DNA of 64,000 nt from an uncultured bacterium (lineage in GTDB: Bacteria; Patescibacteriota; Gracilibacteria; Absconditabacterales; Absconditicoccaceae): positions 1-64,000 of the forward strand of contig CALMTC010000004.1 of assembly GCA_937872535.1 (NCBI GenBank). Reading direction: 5' to 3'. A program made the translations under genes and the position numbers. Below, piece by piece: positions 12,038-60,037 of this stretch (position 1 is the first letter of the stretch; each line of letters opens with the position of its first letter). The notes beneath the pieces were generated by a model. The model was not told where the DNA came from. It was given only the letters and a program-made list of their open reading frames with translations, and made no database searches.

Positions 12038-12886
12038 ATGTTTTGAATGAAAAAGATTATTTGTTTTTTGATAGGAATTATTTTTTTGGGGTGAGTTTTT
12101 GCTCAGAATTCACTGGATCCAATGAATTTTTCAAAACTTCAAAACTATATTACTGATTATTCTGAAGTTTTGACAGCTGGACAGAAATCTGAGCTGGAAA
12201 AAATAGCTCAAGACTATGATAAAACTACGACCAATCAGATTGTGACTGTTTTATTTCCGCAGAGAAATTGAAATGAACTTTTTGATATTGGTATGAAACT
12301 TTTTAGGGAGAATGGTGTGGGGGAGAAGGATAAAAATAATGGACTTCTTTTGCTCATAGCGACCGAGGAAAAAAAGATCAGAATTGTTGTCGGGTATGGT
12401 TTGGAAGGTGTAATTCCTGATGTGAAGGCAAGAGATATTATCGAAGAAAAAATTCGTCCTCGAGTGAATTCTGGTGATTATTTTCAGGCGGTAAAAAATT
12501 TTTATTCTGCTAGTAGTGAAGCTATTGGAACTGGGGAGTGGAATGAGGCAATGCAATGAAACCAACAGGAAAATTCTGAGTGGTATGGTGTGTGAATGGG
12601 TTTCTGAGTTTTAATTGCTATACTTGCGATCTATTTTTCTCGCTCCTTTCTGATGGGATCTGTTTTGTTGTCCTGAGTTTCTAGCTTTTTGGCTTATTTT
12701 ATTCAAAGTTCTTGGCTTTGAGGTGAACTTTATCTTGGTTTTCTTTTTGGGTTGCTTTTTACTTTGGCTATGTTTTGAAGTCGCTGATCAAGAGGTGGTG
12801 GCTGACGAAGCTCTGGCTGAGGTTTTTCTTGATGATGATTTTCTGGTGGCTGAGGTTCTTCTGGCGGAGGAGGAGCTTGAGATTAG
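12038..12886 (+). CDS. TPM-domain membrane protein with glycine-rich tail
   Basis: 282 residues. A signal peptide or anchor (IICFLIGIIFLGGVFAQ) is followed by a TPM domain (about 30-180) with the typical TTNQIVTVLFP, NNGLLLLIA and IRIVVGYGLEGVIPD. Two transmembrane segments follow (about 190-240), then a Gly/Ser tail. The last 40 codons contain nine UGA-Gly, three in a row, and one CGA-Trp. TPM proteins (YgcG/Psb32-like) act at membranes in repair or stress; the exact role is unknown. A second ATG at 12047 is possible. Confidence 0.85.
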
Positions 12887-13000: not shown

Positions 13001-13028
13001 TTGTTTTTAATAAAAACTATCGTATAGT
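13001..13028 (+). promoter_or_regulatory. Promoter of the 13.04 kb RNA
   Basis: TTGTTT, 16 bases, TATAGT, placed seven bases before the presumed RNA start; no ORF follows. Confidence 0.6.
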
Positions 13029-13034
13029 GACGGT

Positions 13035-13250
13035 GTGATAATGAATAAGTGTCTCCAACACAAAAATTATTGGTCCATTCCCTACCAAGGGTGGTGGTCA
13101 AGCCCGGTTAGGTGCGAAGTCTAAGTTTACTAGTTTTCTTGAATGGCGATTGCTATCTTGGAAAGCTAGTAAGCTTGGAATCCGGGTTTGTATTTCTTTC
13201 CCCTCAAACCTAACCATTCCAAGCTGAGAGTATTTCCTCAGCTTTTTTTT
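13035..13250 (+). ncRNA. Free-standing structured RNA, about 215 nt, unassigned
   Basis: No ORF. It is bounded by a promoter and by a strong terminator (AAGCTGAG with CTCAGCTT, eight T). GC content is clearly higher than in the flanks. Stems seen: ACTAGTTTTC near 13129 with GGAAAGCTAGT near 13161; GCTTGGAAT near 13170 with ATTCCAAGC near 13216, enclosing GGGTTTG/CAAACC. Two competing long-range pairings are possible: CAAGCCCGG with CCGGGTTTG, and GGTTAGGT with ACCTAACC. I could not match it to RNase P, tmRNA, SRP or 6S RNA. Confidence 0.7.
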
Positions 13251-13280
13251 AAGTAAAAATTTTTTATTCTGGTTTTTGAA

Positions 13281-13310
13281 AAACTCCTCGTAGCAGAGGA
13301 GTTTTTTTAT
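13281..13310. terminator. Terminator (AAACTCCTC/GAGGAGTTT)
   Basis: A perfect nine-pair stem with a six-base loop and T run. It lies between the structured RNA and the convergent membrane gene and can serve either strand. Confidence 0.8.
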
Positions 13311-13335
13311 TTTTTTAGCAGAATTTAAATTTTTT

Positions 13336-14322
13336 TTATGGAGTGATGATGACGAAATTAGTGACTAGATAACCAGCTCAAATCAAAATGATTCACATAA
13401 AACCATAAATGAGACTGTTTCTAATTTTTGATACTTTGTCTTCGCTGTCAGGATTGGCTAGGAGCTGTATAGTCTGGACGATGATAAGAATCAGGATTAC
13501 TAAGAGAATGAAGCTCATTGCTCGATTGATAATTTCATAAGCAAATGAGAAATCTCTATCTTCAATAACTGAACTACCAATGTCTCCTAAACTTGCTACA
13601 TTTCCATTGATTGATGGGTTGGTCACTTCTGTTCTTTTTCCGTATATGGCTTCGACAATTGATTGAGATCCGATGAGGAGTAAAATTCAAATAGTATTGT
13701 AGATGATAATAGTCCTTGCGTGGCCTTTGATTTTATCACTTGGAGATAATATGAATCTAAATGCATGGATAAGAAGAATGACAAATAGTAATCAAACAAC
13801 TAAAAATAAGGCTAGTTTGATAAATGGATATAACAAGAGAGTATAAAGTTTTTCAGCTGTTGCGACTCCTATAAATGTATTTGATGTTCCTTGTCCAACT
13901 ATTTGTTCGAAGAGTGTATTTCAGATAAATTGAGCTGAGACCATTAAAATTGTTCCAACTACTCATCAAACGAGATAATTTGTTCATTTTTTGATTCCGT
14001 CTTTGTCTGATGAGCTCATTAAAGTATAAAAACCAAGAAAACCAATTAAAATTCCAACGACGATAGCAATAGGAATTATTATCTTGATACCAATGTAGAG
14101 CATGAGATCTGCAACTCATCTGGCTCAACGAGTTACGATTCAAGCATTGAGTGCATTTCCTATGAGTGGACTGACAACGCTTCCCATTACAGCATCAAAT
14201 CTTCATTGAAATTGATTTCCAGAGAACGGATTTGTTCCTGTATTCTGAGCAAAAACTCCATTGATAAAGAAAAGTGTGCTGAACAAAGACCAGATAAAAA
14301 TATTTTTTATGAATTTTTTCAT
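13336..14322 (-). CDS. Polytopic membrane protein of a T4SS-like locus
   Basis: 328 residues. A cleavable signal (FIWSLFSTLFFINGVFAQ) is followed by about six hydrophobic helices, including LYIGIKIIIPIAIVVGILIG and a final TM pair near the C terminus (AMSFILLVILILIIVQT). It is the last gene of a three-gene minus-strand run headed by a VirB4-type ATPase, so a VirB6/TrbL-like channel or pilin-related role is likely, though no signature proves it. UGA-Gly occurs at many sites in the helices. Confidence 0.75.
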
Positions 14323-14347
14323 TGGTTTTTTGATGGATTGTAAATCA

Positions 14348-15361
14348 TTATTTTTGAATTTTTCATTTTATTCGCATCCCTGCTGATCGTCATAATGCTG
14401 TTATTTCATGGATAAGTGGAATTTTTGGTAGTCCGTGAACTGGAAGCATAACTAAAAATCTAGCAATAATGAGTAATCGTGGGATATACTTTTTGAGAGC
14501 GAGGCTATTGAATGATGCATCTTGGTAGATTATAAAAATATTTCGACCGATACATAAAACTAAAATGACATATTCTGTATATAATTGTCGATTGTTTTTG
14601 ATCGCATAAATTGCTCAAAAATCTTTTTTAATTGACTGTATGTAGTCGCTGAGTTTTTCTGTCTCGAGATTTTTTCTCATCTTGTCTATGATAAAAAGGA
14701 TAGGACCTTTGATGTAAGCTCGTAGTTCTTCGATATTAGTTGTAAAAAGATTGTTGAGAAGTTCTTTGATGGAGTCATTTATAAGATCGATGCCACCGAG
14801 TAGGGTAGCGATTCTGATGATGATAAGCAGTAAAATAGCTATATCAAAACCTCAGTATGGAAATATCAATGAGATGATGATAAAAAGTGTTCGTCGTAGA
14901 AGCGATTCTTTGAGCCATCGAAATGGTTTTTCAAAACTATGAAGCTTATATCGTAGAAAAAAGTTATAGAATGGTAGAAATGCCATAAAAATATTACTAT
15001 CTCCTTTTTGAATTTCTTTGAATTCAAGTTTTTCATCTGATTCGAGAATATGTTTATCTGAGAAAATCATCAATGCTCCCGTGATAATTGTCGCTATAAT
15101 TCAAACTGTTAGTGCGATGTTTACTCGTTCAAGAACGGCTGAGTTCATAAAGAATCCTATGAATCAGTTTATGATCGCTATAAAAAGTGCAAAAATAATG
15201 AAATAACCTAATTTACAATATCATTCTATAAATTTTTTGTCTTCTGCATTTAATGTGAGATGACTATGTTCCAAAAGATTTTTTACTAATGGAGCAAAAA
15301 ACATAATAGCTGATAGTGATAGAAAAACTTTGTTTTGATTGTTTTCTTGGAGCATTTTCAT
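14348..15361 (-). CDS. Polytopic membrane protein next to VirB4-like ATPase
   Basis: 337 residues from ATG 15361. Hydrophobic segments lie near 12-30, 50-75, 85-105, 175-205 and 265-305, with a charged loop (SDKHILESDEKLEFKEIQKG) between. No known domain recognised. It lies 25 bases upstream of the previous membrane gene and 40 bases downstream of the ATPase, so the three are probably one transcript. An AT box ending in ATTATTCTG precedes the start. Confidence 0.7.
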
Positions 15362-15401
15362 GATGAAGTCTTCAGAATAATAAATTTTTTTATTTTATTT
15401 T

Positions 15402-17357
15402 TTATGTTGCAGTGATATTAGTGGTAATGAAATCTTTTTCTTCTGGTGATGCCATGATTTTTACTGCTACATGCTGAGAGCCTGCAAAAAGTAATCACTC
15501 TCAAATATTTGCTGAGACGAGAGTTTGTTTTTCTGTTTCGGTGAGTCCTAGGATGCTACTCAGTGATTTTATCGATGTAGTGGACTGTTTCAACAGAATC
15601 TGTACGGCTGAGTTTGAGACAATTGGTTTTCCGTATTTACTCTTTACAAAATCTTCGATATCCTGAGAAATGGTCGTGATTCCTAATCAATATTTTCTGG
15701 CTCTTTTGATAAGTCAGAATAAAAAGTTTGCAGATATTTCATTTTGGAGCATAATCCACGCTTCGTCCACAACTAATAATCTCTGAGTTTTTTGGGATCT
15801 AATTTTTGTTCGGATAAAGTTCAAAACATTGTACATTGCTGGAGTTTTGAGAGCTTCTTCGAGATCTCTGATACTAAATACTGTAAACTGGGCTGAAAGA
15901 TCTATATTTGTTTGATTATTGAATACTTTGGCAAAAGTTCCTGTTACATATTTACTGAGTCTGATGGCTAGATTTTCTCCTCCTTCCATTCCTTCTAGGA
16001 CATTGAGTAGGTCTTCCATGATCGGAGGTTTTTTTCCTGTATAATCGTCGCTGTCTATTGTAATTCATTTCAGAGCGTAAGTGTTTTGGAGTGCTTTGTC
16101 GAGAAGAGCCTCTGATTCTGGTGTAAGTCAGCCTACCAATATGCCAATCATTCCTAAAAGTCCTGATATCTGACTTCTGAGAAGATCTCATTTTCCGTAT
16201 TCTATGTCTTCAATTTTGGGTGGGATATCGAAGGGATTGATATGCTGATCTGAGTTTGTAGCTATATTTACATACGTTCCTCATACTTTTTCTGTGAGGG
16301 CTTTGTATTCATTTTCTGGATCGATTACCATTACTTGAATTCCCTGAATCAGATATCTGAGGATTTCTAATTTGACTGTAAATGATTTACCAGCTCCTGA
16401 TGTGGCTAAAACAACACTATTCATATTTGGGAGTTTATTATTGAATCTATCGAAAACAACGAGAGCTCCAGTTTGCATGTTTAGACCGTATAAAATTCAG
16501 GTTTTTGAAATAATATCTGAAGAAATAAATGGAAAACTTCCTGCTAATGACGAAGTTACCATACTTCTCGTGATACCAAGGTCATCAATACAAAGTGGTA
16601 CATTGCAGTTCATTCCTTCATCCATTCTTTGATTTGCTGCTTTTATTTTTATTCAATAACCAGAAATTTTTTGTTCAAATTTTTTTCCTTCTTCAACTAA
16701 TTTGTCTGCTTCTGGATTATAGAGACTCATATAAAACCCACTCTCAAAGTATCTTTCTTCGCGAGTTGCTAGTTTTTGTCTAATCATTTCAACATCTCTG
16801 TACTGTACTTCGAGTTCTGTATCGATTGTGATTCTTTTGGAAGCTGCTTCGTTGATTTCTGCTTTTAGCTGAGTAGCTTTATTTTTAAGCATTGTTTGAA
16901 TAGCTGAATCTTCTTCTGGATAGATGAAAAAACTCATATCTCGTTTGCTATGAAAACTTAAGATATCTCTTGTCCAAAGCATATCTATGTAAGAAGGATA
17001 GTTGTTGGCATAGTATGTTTTTCATGTCATTCCTGAGACATTGAACTGATTTCCTTTGATTTCTCGATAACTTGGAGCGATGTGTGTCTTGATGTCGCTC
17101 ATAGAGCTATGAAAACTTTTTTCTGTAGCTTGTATATATCTTCTTAGTTCTGAGGTGAGTAATTTATCACTGTAGTCTTTATCTGGGAGCTCGAGCATTT
17201 TTTTGATCTGATCTTTTAGATCTAATGCTCCTTTGAAATCTTTTGGATCACTTTGTTTAGTGGTTTGTTTGGTTTGGTTTGGTGTTCAAAAAATCCAAGC
17301 AACGAGTCTATCTAGTCGACTTTTTTGCTCGGTATTGGTTGGTGTTTCTGCTGCCAA
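15402..17357 (-). CDS. VirB4/TraC-type secretion ATPase
   Basis: 651 residues from a TTG at 17357; the frame is closed by TAA about 15 codons upstream and the first in-frame ATG is about 60 codons inside, so TTG is the best start. Walker A is ATSGAGKSFTVK (about 318-329), Walker B LLVVDEAW (527-534), followed by the SQD motif region (TTISQDIEDF). The N-terminal half matches the VirB4 N domain (SFFIYPEED...). It powers a type IV secretion or DNA-transfer/uptake machine at the inner membrane. The two downstream membrane genes probably form its complex; no relaxase or coupling protein is visible. Confidence 0.9.
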
Positions 17358-17524
17358 AAAAGGGTATCAACCTCATTTTACGAAATTGGTGTAGTTGGTA
17401 TCAAAAACTTTATTTATGTTTGTTGTCATGGAGATTGGTAGAAATCAAATCTTATAATCGAATCTGATTTATACTATCTAAAAAATAAATTTATGCAAAA
17501 AAGCCTTATGATTTTTCTGTGCTT

Positions 17525-55187: not shown

Positions 55188-55222
55188 AAAAAATCTCCCT
55201 TTTTCAAAAAGGAGATTTTCTC
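55188..55222 (-). terminator. Terminator of the WxL-like gene
   Basis: AAAATCTCC and GGAGATTTT with a CTTTTT/AAAAAG inner stem. Confidence 0.75.
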
Positions 55223-55238
55223 TGTTATTTTTTTAATT

Positions 55239-55829
55239 CTAGTTTTCTATCAACGTGTATGTCAGTGTGGCTGTATAGTTACCAATTGCTTGGAATGCCG
55301 GTACTGACACCTGTAGGAATGGATAACTACCATATTTTCCAATTACTCCCGAGTTCGCTGCTGTATCTCTTTTTATAAATGTGACTGGACTGTTGAGAGC
55401 TTGATAAGCAACTAAGGTGTCCGCTACTACTACTCTTGGATTTGCTGCTCCTGTAAGGAGGACAGTTCCTGTAGAAGTTACTTTTACAGCTACATTTGAC
55501 GATGCTATTGTTCCATTTGGTCCAGTGAGATTCGTCGATTGAAGTGTTGTGTAGTAACCAGAATTGGCACCTTTAAGATCTTCTACGAAGAAAGCGTTTG
55601 CTGCTCATGTGAACTGAGCTTCTTTGGTTGTCACTGTCGATGCAACGGTCACTGATCCGAGATCAAAATTTCCAGTGCTTCCGATTGACACTGCTCAACC
55701 AGATATGGTCAATGTAATTGCTGTATCAAGAGCTGCACTTACTTGTTTTACTACTCGTACGACGCTGAGAAGGGCACATGTTGCTCCTATAATAGTACCT
55801 CGTTTCACTACTTTTTTGTTGTTGTTCAT
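55239..55829 (-). CDS. WxL-like surface protein
   Basis: 196 residues. Signal-like start (KKVVKRGTIIGATCALLSVV and a site after VSA), then TLTISGGAVSIGSTGNFDLGSVTV, FFVEDLKGANSGYYTTLQST and at the end YPFLQVSVPAFQAIGNYTATLTYTLIEN (split), which follows WxL domain layout (FGS, D.RG...GW, YTATLTWTL). Consensus promoter TTGACA-16-TATAAT lies upstream, which suggests high expression. Probably a cell-surface or S-layer-like protein. Confidence 0.65.
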
Positions 55830-55901
55830 CTCTTTTGTTTATCTCTATATAAATAAATTTTTTTATTTATTGTTCTGTTTTTTCTTTTTGAACAATGTCT
55901 T

Positions 55902-55929
55902 ATTATATATAATATTTTCTATTTGTCAA
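55902..55929 (-). promoter_or_regulatory. Promoter of the WxL-like gene
   Basis: In minus-strand sense TTGACA, 16 bases, TATAAT, both hexamers perfect, with a 5' leader of about 65 bases. Confidence 0.85.
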
Positions 55930-55955
55930 TTTTTCTATAGCAGAATATAAATTTT

Positions 55956-58874
55956 TTAATATTCATAGATGGTAAATGTGAGAGTTCAATTATAAGATCA
56001 TGGATTTTGGTATGCTGGAATGAGGATTTTTATTTGTGGTGTATTTCAATAGATTCATCTTAGATAGTTATTTGGAGCAGTATTTCTCATGATATAGGTA
56101 AATACTCAACTCATTGCTTGAAAGGATGAAAGTCCAGTCGAAATAGTAACTAGAGGATTGGCTGAGCCACTGAGAAGCTGTATGCCTGTGGCTTGTATAA
56201 AAATACTTGAACTGGGAATTGTGCTAAATAATCATGAAAGAGGGGTGGCTGATAATGTCGTATAATAACCACTATTTAATCCTTTTTGATCACTAATACT
56301 GAAAGGAATGGTTGGAGACTGAATAGCTTCCTGTAGTATATTACTTGCTAAAAGTCCAGTAAATTGAAGCCCGGATGCACTATTTATAGTTACTGTTCCA
56401 ATTCGTTCTACTGTTGCTGTGATTTCTCATGTAGAGCCATCAAGATTTAGGTATTCAAATGTAAATGTCCCGTTATTAGTAAAGGTATAGACCCCTGTCG
56501 CATTATTATTTGTAATGATGGTGGTATTTGGTAGTCAAGTGACTGTTGCTTTTACTGATCAGGTCGTGGCTCCGGTGGTACTATAGTTTATAGATGGTCA
56601 TGTTACGATACTGAGGGCTGAAGTGAATACGAATGAACCAGAGTAGCCATAGGCGTTTATTACTTTAAGTGTTACATTGTAGGTTCAGTTGGCGAAAGGA
56701 CCTATTGTTTCGTTTGGTATTGTTCGCGTTCAGTTACTGGAATTTACTGTGCCTGTGTAATTTATTCAACTGATCGTAACTATAACTGAAGATGTTTTTG
56801 GTCATACTGTTCACGATAATGTCGGACTGTCATTATTGGTAGTCAGGGTTTGAAAAGTTCCTGTTAGTGCTGATAATAGTTGTATTCTAGGAACTGGTAA
56901 ATTTATATTGTAAACACGAGTTTCGTCTATTGCTCATGAAAAATATCTTGTTGGGGTGCTGGTACTTTGTCTTCCTATTGAAACGACATTTGCTGCATTA
57001 CTAGAAAATGTGACGAGTGGAGACGCTGTCGCTTCGGAGATGCCGTTTACATAAAGTCTTATATCTGTAGTGCTGTTAAAAACTCATACTATATAATATC
57101 GCTGTCCTGTAACTAGACTTGACGATGAATTTGTAATAGACTCTAATGTATTTCTTAAAATGACACTTGCTTTATTACCATTGAGACCGATTCCTCGATA
57201 TCTATTATTTGCTGATGATCTTGCAAGTCAGGCAATTCGTTGTACTCCAGAAAGACGACTTGGTCTTACTCGGGCTCCAATTGTAAAAGGGAATGCTGTG
57301 ACTATTTGATCATTTCTTTGAAGATATGCATTTGTTCCATTAAAGTTTACTATAGATTCTGCTCACAGAGTAGTGACAGTGTAACCTCCAAATCAAGTTG
57401 CATTATCTCCGTTAGTAGAACTGTCAAAAAAAACTGCACCACTATTACTACTTGTGATATGTCGGATTAATCAGGATGCCATTACTACACTATTTGTGTC
57501 TAGGTAAATTCTATCAGTAGTAAAAGCTGTAGTACCACCGGAATTACTGAATGCAGCATAGACTGTTTTGAGTTCATCTGTTCCTGTAAGTGTCCAGTTG
57601 AAGCTGCTAGAATATCCTGTCCAGTTTGCTGCATCTCTTGCTGCTGGTGTATTTCCAAATTTCATGAGAGTAGCTCCTGTTACATTGTTTTGGAGAGTAA
57701 CATTGAATCCGGTTGCTGTGGTTGCGTCATTATTTATGACAAATGATCCTGTTGAAAGTCAGAATGAAAATATTGTAAAATGTGTTGTGTTGAAAGAAAT
57801 CGTTGTTTCTCCATCTTGTTCTTTTGCTTCGGTAGTGGTTTGGTGTGATCGAGTTTCTCCGTTATCTTCTGAGAAAAAGACATCAATTGTGTTCCCTAGA
57901 AAAATAGAATCGACAGTGCTTGTGATTTGAACTGTTTTTGGGGTCATATCAATTTTATCAATAAAATCGATATTTTCATCTGTTTTTACTTTTATTGTTT
58001 TGAAAATATTATTATTTTCATCTGGGTAAGATGTCGTTTCGATGGTTTCAGGCTTATAAATGATTCACTGATAGGCTTTTCTTTCTCTTGTCAGTGCTTT
58101 TGTACCTGCGTTGATTTTAATTTTTATGGTTTCATCATCTGATACGAGGTCGATACTTTCTGTTATAATTCCTTGGGAGTATTTTGTTCTTATATTTTTC
58201 TTAATTTTATTATTTTCTTTAAAAAAGTTTTTATTCTGACTTTTGAAATTATTTCCAGTACATGGCTCAGTGACTATACAGTCTGTTCATGGAAAATCCA
58301 TTTCATTATAAAAATCAAGAATATTAGTATCTTCTTCAATTTCTTCTCAAGTATTTATTTCTGTTGTTCTGTCTTTTGTTATTAGGGAGATTTCTTTGTT
58401 ATCTGTATCATCAATAAGTGATTCATTATTTTTTCCACTTAATTCTATTGAGTTTCATAGATCTCAACTTCAAAACTCATTTGTGATGATTTCTCTTTCT
58501 TGATTTTCTCAAGTTATTATTGATCAAGTAATTTCTAGTGGACTATTTATTGTCGTATTATTTAAGCTATCTCATGATCCATTTTCCGAGGTAGAAATAT
58601 CGAAAGATGTAACAGTTGGTTGACTATTTTCAGTTTCATAAACTGTGATTGTTTGTGATTTCTCTTCATAAGTGGGAGGTGGAGTGTCTGTTTGTTCATA
58701 AACTGTGATTGTTTGTTCTGGTAAACTTACGGTTTCTGTTGTTTGTGTTATTTCTGCTTCTTGAGCAAATGTACTTTTTGAGCTTATCGATTGTATGATG
58801 ATTTGTGAAAAAATAGCAATAGTGATTGCTACTTTTATAACTGTCCCGTATGATATCTTTTTTATTTTTTCCAT
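55956..58874 (-). CDS. Large LamG/WxL surface adhesin
   Basis: 972 residues. Signal helix (about 12-32), then a repeat QTITVYE twice near 50-75, an acidic low-complexity stretch to about 170, beta domains, a LamG/concanavalin-like module (about 490-650; GFGGYTVTTL, VNFNGTNAYLQRNDQIVTAFPFTIGA), two Ig-like modules (TLKVINAYGYSGSFVFTS) and a C-terminal WxL-like domain ending in PAYQNPGSYNGTLTFTIYEY. Secreted; likely binds carbohydrate or host surface. Confidence 0.7.
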
Positions 58875-59088: not shown

Positions 59089-60037
59089 GTTGATGAGGGA
59101 TGAATGTTTTCGTTTCTGTATCGGTCATTAAAATGGAGTAGTTCTTTTTCCTAGTAGATGGTTGAGGCTTCATTACTTTTCTGAAGTTTTGCTGAGATTT
59201 GTGTCAGGTTTGTAGGTGATAGTGAAAATGGTTGGTAATTCGACCGTTGGAGGTATGATTAGCAGCCTTATTGTCTCCGCTGATTTGAGATGGTTTTCGG
59301 TTTCAGTCGTCTACTAGGGGGAAGGATATCTCAACTTATTATTGTGCGTGGCTTTTGAGGCTGAAGGTGCTAAGTCTTTGACTTGGTGCTGTCGGAGATT
59401 CGAGCTTTCCATGGACTTGTAGATTTCTGAGGAGAAACGGAACTTTTTCTTCGGTATCTAGCTTTTCTTTGTGATTGGTCTTTATATGAGGCTGATTATA
59501 GAGGGAGTTTCAGGGGAGTATTTCGTAATCTTTTCGATCTTTAGGGAGGAAAATACAATAATTGCGATGTTTGTTTAAAGTAGAAATACTTTTTATCAAT
59601 CTTTGTTATCCTGGCTGATAGCCGTTGTCTTCGTTCTTGACTGCTTTTCTTAATTTTTTCATCATAGAGGTATTATATCTTGATGGTGGTAAAGTCGAGT
59701 GAGTAGGTAAGAAAAAGATGATGAATGAAAAGACTTTTATTGAGAAGTACTGTCTGACTTGTTTTCAGAATCCTATTGGATGATGAGGATAGGGGATTAC
59801 TATACGATTTCGTATCGTGTATTATTTCAGTTTGGTGGGTAGTAAAAATTCTGAGTGCTGACTCTTCGTAGTCTCACTGTGAAACCTGTGTGTTGTCGGT
59901 GAAAGTCGACTTGCTAGGGTGGTGTGAACTTATCGTTTTCATCTTTTTATTATCGGGTCTTGTATGATAGTGGGTAGTGGTGTCTTTTCTCCTTTTTTTG
60001 TTCTTACATTATGCCAGATTTTATCTGGTGTTTTTTT
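59089..60037 (+). ncRNA. Large structured non-coding RNA, about 950 nt, unassigned
   Basis: No ORF over about 60 codons with UGA as sense on the + strand. A perfect promoter precedes and a terminator ends it. GC is well above the window. Hairpins seen: GTGCTAAGTC/GACTTGGTGC with a three-base loop (about 59366-59388), AAAGTA-GAAA-TACTTT (about 59577-59592), GTATTT/AAATAC, CCTAT/ATAGG, ACGAT/ATCGT, GACT/AGTC, and GTCGGT-GAAA-GTCGAC near 59903, a U-G closed GAAA hairpin. GATGAA near the 5' end can pair with TTCATC near the 3' end. Candidate for a new large RNA class. Confidence 0.75.
60011..60037 (+). terminator. Terminator of the large RNA
   Basis: CCAGAT and ATCTGG around a three-base loop, then GTG and seven T. 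Confidence 0.8.

What the first reader, a model, noticed from the sequence alone, without database searches (positions are those of the whole stretch)
13035..13250. Unassigned 215-nt RNA with competing long-range helices
It has its own promoter and terminator and no downstream gene on the same strand, so it is not a leader. Two alternative pairings share bases (CAAGCCCGG/CCGGGTTTG and GGTTAGGT/ACCTAACC), pointing to a pseudoknot or switchable fold.
Basis: seen in the sequence. Interest (0 to 1): 0.72.

Follow-up and report, generated by a model that had tools for sequence, protein, structure and literature searches.

The report
Orphan structured RNA in a Gracilibacterium
A roughly 200-base stretch between two convergent genes of a tiny uncultured bacterium (one that reads TGA as glycine) looks like a real, strongly folded RNA that ends in its own terminator, but it matches no known RNA and has no detectable relative in 48 related genomes, so its function cannot yet be inferred.

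Summary
Folding z is -6.1 to -6.8 on the + strand and -2.4 on the - strand. H3 and H4 share only GG (13106-13107); trimmed to 7+8 bp they can coexist as a pseudoknot, and predicted folding of growing transcripts puts H3 before H4. "Own promoter" is only weakly supported. The genome is Gracilibacteria-type (TGA=Gly). The RNA is not 6S, RNase P RNA or tmRNA, each found elsewhere in the genome; SRP RNA and SRP proteins are undetected across the family. No homologue turned up in 48 family genomes, GTDB contigs, or viral, phage and plasmid sets. A control model built the same way from this genome's 6S RNA did recover 6S in other genera, so the failure is informative. Covariation cannot be tested because no same-genus genome is held. 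Best reading: a young, lineage-restricted, terminator-ended structured RNA, either autonomous or a 3' UTR product of the upstream TPM gene. Transcription and mechanism are unproven.

The parts
13035..13250 (+). Candidate structured RNA (start uncertain, 13035-13050; end at the terminator U tract)
   Evidence: MFE -72.3, z -6.1/-6.8 on + and -2.4 on -; no Rfam match
13002..13042 (+). Weak promoter-like signals: TTGTTT-N15-TATAGT and extended -10 TGTGATAAT
   Evidence: Read by eye; not reported by the consensus scan
13070..13101 (+). 5' hairpin (13 bp with a bulge); its last bases overlap the 5' strand of H3
   Evidence: MFE structure; -11.4 kcal/mol alone
13099..13107 (+). H3 5' strand CAAGCCCGG, pairs with 13182-13190
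   Evidence: predicted to form first in a growing transcript
13106..13113 (+). H4 5' strand GGTTAGGT, pairs with 13208-13215
   Evidence: present in the MFE
13120..13179 (+). P3: 20-bp wobble-rich hairpin (13120-13139/13160-13179) with an apical 5-bp stem
   Evidence: -31.1 kcal/mol alone; score reached by 0 of 500 shuffles
13172..13181 (+). H2 5' strand AGCTTGGAAT, pairs with ATTCCAAGCT 13216-13225; competes with the base of P3 and with the terminator
   Evidence: Perfect 10 bp; the H2 hairpin is -19.4 alone, but enforcing it costs about 10 kcal/mol overall
13182..13190 (+). H3 3' strand CCGGGTTTG
13191..13207 (+). Mostly unpaired CU-rich loop UAUUUCUUUCCCCUCAA
   Evidence: MFE structure; no target signal above shuffled seeds
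13208..13215 (+). H4 3' strand ACCTAACC
13216..13225 (+). H2 3' strand ATTCCAAGCT, overlaps the terminator 5' arm by 5 nt
13221..13250 (+). Intrinsic terminator AAGCTGAG-N8-CTCAGCTT plus U tract
   Evidence: -10.6 kcal/mol
12038..12886 (+). Upstream same-strand gene: TPM-domain membrane protein (TGA=Gly), possible source of a 3' UTR
   Evidence: PF04536, E 8.7e-34
13336..14322 (-). Convergent gene: T4SS pilin/VirB6-like membrane protein, nearest of a - strand cluster that includes a VirB4/TraG-like ATPase (15402-17429)
   Evidence: PF18895 and PF19044

Best explanation
A genuine structured noncoding RNA of about 200 nt, encoded on the + strand, ended by an intrinsic terminator and restricted to this lineage. 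Predicted folding of growing transcripts: the 5' hairpin and the long P3 hairpin form first, then H3 closes P3. When the CU-rich linker and the H4 3' strand emerge, H4 pairs through the shared GG. This either displaces H3 or stacks with a 7-bp H3 to make a compact pseudoknot with helix order P1-P2-P3-P1'-P2'. The terminator then forms. Most likely it acts post-transcriptionally, as a trans-acting or protein-binding RNA, with the unpaired CU-rich linker and the P3 apical loop as candidate contact sites. Shown by computation: the helices, the terminator, the + strand bias of the fold, and absence from known families and from the relatives held. Inferred: that it is transcribed, its start point, the pseudoknot, and any regulatory role.
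For: Fold z -6.1/-6.8 on + against -2.4 on -; without the terminator z -5.3, core alone z -6.1. Top five helices are rare in shuffles. GC is 0.41 (core 0.45) against 0.34 for the window. Intrinsic terminator. Helix order H3 then H4 in growing transcripts. No Rfam family. Own 6S, RNase P RNA and tmRNA lie elsewhere. Single copy in the genome.
Against: No transcript data. No homologue in 48 family genomes, so no covariation test. Promoter weak. Known functional RNAs of this genome (6S, RNase P, tmRNA) have modest z-scores of -1.4 to -2.8, so an extreme z is not a hallmark of function here. A pseudoknot pattern nearly as strong occurs in an unrelated place in another genome (best 39.0 in G042 against 42.5 here, though with a 10-bp instead of a 20-bp hairpin). 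No mRNA target signal above shuffled seeds.
Confidence: 0.45

Rival explanations
1. It is the structured 3' UTR and terminator of the TPM-domain gene (12038-12886), not an autonomous gene. It would stabilise the mRNA or release a 3'-derived small RNA by processing.
For: Same strand, about 150 nt after the TPM stop. No terminator-like site lies between the gene and the RNA, and no consensus promoter lies before the RNA.
Against: TPM homologues in relatives are followed by other genes and show no such RNA. Weak promoter-like hexamers lie just upstream of 13035. The fold is far more elaborate than a terminator.
Confidence: 0.25
2. Non-functional sequence: a chance or decayed palindromic element, such as remains of a mobile element, that folds well.
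For: No conservation in the family. A few other intergenic windows of this genome fold as well (4 of 568 at z <= -6), and the genome carries other long inverted repeats.
Against: Single copy. Wobble pairs keep 20 consecutive pairs intact on the + strand only. Five strong helices including a terminator in 210 nt.
Confidence: 0.2
3. An orphan transcription attenuator. P3 sequesters the H2 5' strand so the terminator forms. If P3 is opened, for example by a ribosome at the stop codon (13122-13124) of a mini-ORF 13041-13124 (MNKCLQHKNYWSIPYQGWWSSPVRCEV), H2 forms as an antiterminator and disrupts the terminator.
For: H2 is a perfect 10-bp helix that overlaps the terminator's 5' arm by 5 nt and the P3 3' arm by 8 nt. 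The mini-ORF has tandem Trp codons.
Against: No + strand gene to regulate; a second terminator lies at 13278-13307 and then - strand genes. Enforcing H2 costs about 10 kcal/mol. A frame of 27 codons is unremarkable when only TAA and TAG stop.
Confidence: 0.07
4. A highly diverged housekeeping RNA (6S, SRP RNA, RNase P RNA or tmRNA).
For: SRP RNA is not detected in this genome, and Rfam's 6S model misses this genome's 6S.
Against: RNase P RNA, tmRNA and 6S are found elsewhere in the genome. SRP RNA and SRP54-domain proteins are undetected across the family, so there is no SRP for it to serve. The family 6S model scores at most 6.8 bits here.
Confidence: 0.02

Closest known systems
Orphan intergenic structured small RNAs of bacteria, as sought by GC-rich intergenic-region screens (PMC6429828, PMC8632094; abstracts seen)
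   Same: GC-rich island in an AT-rich intergenic region, stable fold, intrinsic terminator, no adjacent regulated gene
   Different: Those classes are accepted on comparative evidence; this one has no homologues yet
HDV-like ribozymes (topology only)
   Same: Helix order P1-P2-P3-P1'-P2', with a 7-bp P1 and a P2 immediately following it
   Different: P3 has 20 bp instead of about 3, there is no P4, P1 starts with C-G instead of the G-U at the cleavage site, and there is no Rfam match
Transcription attenuators
   Same: Mutually exclusive helices, one of which overlaps an intrinsic terminator
   Different: No gene downstream on the same strand, and the antiterminator form is about 10 kcal/mol less stable

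Membership tests
6S RNA | Match to the Rfam or a family-specific 6S model; closing stem and central bubble | tested here: not met
   No Rfam 6S match; family model R2 scores at most 6.8 bits here and finds the likely true 6S at L139:13620-13770(-), 34.4 bits
RNase P RNA / tmRNA | Match to RF00010 / RF00023 | tested here: not met
   Both lie elsewhere: G000:C7:15254-15594(-) and G000:C19:42824-43197(-)
SRP RNA | Match to RF00169; an SRP54-type partner in the genome | tested here: not met
   No match in own genome or in any family genome; no SRP54 G-domain protein over the cut-off
HDV-like ribozyme | Nested pseudoknot helix order P1-P2-P3-P1'-P2' | tested here: inconclusive
   The complementary strands are in that order: H3 13099-13105/13184-13190, H4 13106-13113/13208-13215, P3 between them; that the pseudoknot forms is inferred
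HDV-like ribozyme | P1 begins with G-U at the cleavage site, short P3; Rfam match | tested here: not met
   First pair is C13099-G13190, P3 has 20 bp, and no Rfam HDV match up to E 10
Attenuator / riboswitch leader | Regulated gene downstream on the same strand | tested here: not met
   The next genes, 13336-17429, are all on -; a second terminator lies at 13278-13307
Attenuator / riboswitch leader | Antiterminator helix mutually exclusive with an intrinsic terminator | tested here: met
   H2 overlaps the terminator arm by 5 nt, though it is disfavoured by about 10 kcal/mol
Trans-acting small RNA | Discrete transcript | not testable with these tools
   No expression data available
Trans-acting small RNA | Base-pairing targets | tested here: inconclusive
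   The duplex scan of 1042 approximate gene starts gave no signal above shuffled seeds
Conserved structured ncRNA class | Homologues with covariation | tested here: not met
   No homologue in 48 family genomes; a 6S control model built the same way finds 6S across genera. Not testable within the genus

The most novel reading that the evidence does not exclude
A new class of pseudoknotted regulatory RNA confined to one genus of TGA=Gly CPR bacteria, whose H3-to-H4 strand exchange during transcription is a functional switch.
Probability: 0.1. Interest if true: 0.6.

Novelty: new member of a known kind. Interest (0 to 1): 0.3.

Why it matters
Almost nothing is known about regulatory RNAs in host-dependent CPR bacteria. 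A well-folded RNA outside every Rfam family is a concrete candidate for testing. The more secure gain is the bookkeeping: which housekeeping RNAs this lineage keeps (6S, tmRNA, RNase P RNA) and which appears to be lost (SRP RNA together with its proteins).

Tried and rejected
Homology: blastn and the single-sequence model R1 in 48 family genomes (the order holds the same genomes as the family), R1 with E up to 10 in closed genome G042 (best E 0.22), plasmids and phages (one 33-nt match inside a phage gene, E 5e-3, taken as chance), viral contigs (the five exact 16-mer hits were not scanned with R1), GTDB contigs by protein and by pattern (three exact 17-mers in unrelated phyla, no R1 match). 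Synteny: neither the VirB6-like gene nor the TPM gene keeps this intergenic region in relatives. A structural descriptor search (contiguous pseudoknot plus hairpin plus terminator) put the candidate second of 77 hits at 1252 terminators; the top hit overlaps a tRNA-Lys gene, and nothing comparable in P3 length came up in G042. Sequence resemblances considered and dropped: an integron attC site (GTTAGGT/ACCTAAC fit the R box consensus, but in the reverse order), a T-box (only AGGGTGG), an HDV-like ribozyme. sRNA target scan: no signal. Strand asymmetry of raw energy is not by itself unusual in this genome (76 of 748 windows), so I rely on shuffle-controlled z-scores.

Full report
What is in the sequence. 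The window belongs to a 1.25-Mb genome (23 contigs, 98.8% complete) whose genes are open only if TGA is read as glycine, as in Gracilibacteria and Absconditabacteria. The candidate lies between a + strand TPM-domain gene (12038-12886; PF04536) and a convergent - strand type IV secretion-type cluster (13336-17429; PF18895, PF19044). They overlap only by G13106-G13107. There is also a 20-bp wobble-rich hairpin P3 (13120-13139/13160-13179), a perfect 10-bp helix H2 (13172-13181/13216-13225) and an intrinsic terminator (13221-13244).

More than chance. MFE is -72.3 kcal/mol with z -6.1 or -6.8. Without the terminator z is -5.3, and the core 13099-13215 alone gives -6.1; the reverse strand gives -2.4. 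The five best helices were equalled rank for rank in 0, 2, 0, 4 and 2 of 500 shuffles. In the same genome 4 of 568 intergenic windows reach z <= -6, so the candidate would sit in about the top 1%, not alone. The claim of an own promoter is weak: the consensus scan reports none. TTGTTT-N15-TATAGT and TGTGATAAT can be seen by eye. No terminator-like site lies between the TPM gene and the RNA, so a 3' UTR origin remains open.

How it could fold. H3 trimmed to 7 bp and H4 (8 bp) use one continuous 15-nt strand (13099-13113) and can coexist. Their 3' strands lie in the order H3' then H4', with P3 between the 5' and 3' strands, which makes a pseudoknot with the helix order of HDV-like ribozymes. Predicted folding of growing transcripts gives P3 by 13180, then H3 at 13192-13208, then H4 once 13216 has been made, and last the terminator. 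H2 is mutually exclusive with the base of P3 and with the terminator, and costs about 10 kcal/mol to enforce. All of this is prediction; no pair has covariation support.

What it is not. No Rfam family matches at gathering threshold. Up to E 10 on the 500-nt stretch the matches are all below their families' cut-offs and to unrelated families, most of them at the terminators; the best, RefA9 (E 0.0014), lies at 13280-13339 on the other strand and outside the RNA. RNase P RNA and tmRNA lie on other contigs. Rfam's 6S model finds only four family genomes, all below its cut-off. Orienting those four and building a family model (A3, R2) located a likely 6S of this genome at L139:13620-13770(-) (34.4 bits, E 1.7e-5) and one in closed genome G042 (57.9 bits), while the candidate scored at most 6.8 bits. 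SRP RNA is undetected in this genome and in all 49 family genomes, and so are proteins with the SRP54 GTPase domain over the cut-off (all 14 control genomes ring). The Vampirococcus genome paper (PMC8080830) already reports two SRP subunits missing there and in many CPR bacteria. The candidate is therefore very unlikely to be a disguised SRP RNA.

Conservation. No relative of the candidate was found by blastn or by a single-sequence covariance model in 48 other genomes of the family, nor in closed genome G042 with E up to 10. Nor was one found in phages, plasmids, viral contigs or GTDB contigs. This absence has a control. A single-sequence model made in the same way from this genome's 6S RNA (R3) recovers 6S in G042 (E 2.8e-5) and in four further family genomes. 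An RNA conserved as well as 6S would therefore probably have been seen. None of the family genomes held shares this genome's genus, so covariation within the genus cannot be tested here.

Mechanism. The most economical reading is a lineage-restricted, terminator-ended structured RNA that acts after transcription; the unpaired CU-rich linker (13191-13207) and the P3 apical loop are the natural contact sites. A duplex scan of 1042 gene starts gave no target better than shuffled seeds, so the target is open. An attenuator is a neat formal fit (H2 against the terminator; a 27-codon frame with tandem Trp codons), but there is no gene to control. A 3' UTR of the TPM gene is the strongest practical rival; a decayed palindromic element is the null.

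Verdict. It is an orphan RNA candidate of an ordinary kind, with moderate interest because of the organism and the elaborate fold.

Noticed in passing
whole genome and family (G000-G048): SRP RNA (RF00169) and SRP54-domain proteins (Ffh/FtsY, PF00448) are undetected in all 49 family genomes, including single-contig ones. Absence of SRP subunits in many CPR bacteria is already mentioned in PMC8080830.
   Followed up: partly
L139:13620-13770(-) (G000:C19:52620-52770); L237:15807-15954(+); L062-L065 at about 1500-1660: Divergent 6S RNAs of this family that Rfam's 6S model misses or scores below cut-off, and in two cases (L063, L064) apparently places on the wrong strand; a four-sequence family model finds them.
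   Followed up: partly
window 59315-59530 (+): Extreme strand asymmetry of folding (-68 against -17 kcal/mol per 210 nt, z -5.6 on +) with long G-U-rich helices and no Rfam hit: possibly another structured RNA.
   Followed up: partly
L093:16190-17340 (G000:C2, about 55190-56340): CRISPR-like repeats with the Cas12a-type ending ATTTCTACTATTGTAGAT.
   Followed up: no
window about 25395, 48781, 62687; L072, L100: Dispersed imperfect palindrome around CCCTTCGACAGGCTCAGGGA in several intergenic regions: a REP-like element.
   Followed up: no
L136:4280-4540: Long inverted repeat around TAGAGACGCGATTAATCGCGTCTCTA, MITE-like.
   Followed up: no
1042 predicted gene starts of G000: Shine-Dalgarno-like motifs are not enriched at -20..-3 (57 genes) over -45..-28 (78 genes), which suggests mostly SD-independent initiation; gene starts were only approximated.
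   Followed up: no
L204-L209 against window 12038-12886: In several relatives the TPM gene is followed by a LemA-like gene (recognised by motif only, not scanned); in the window it stands alone and is followed by the candidate RNA.
   Followed up: no
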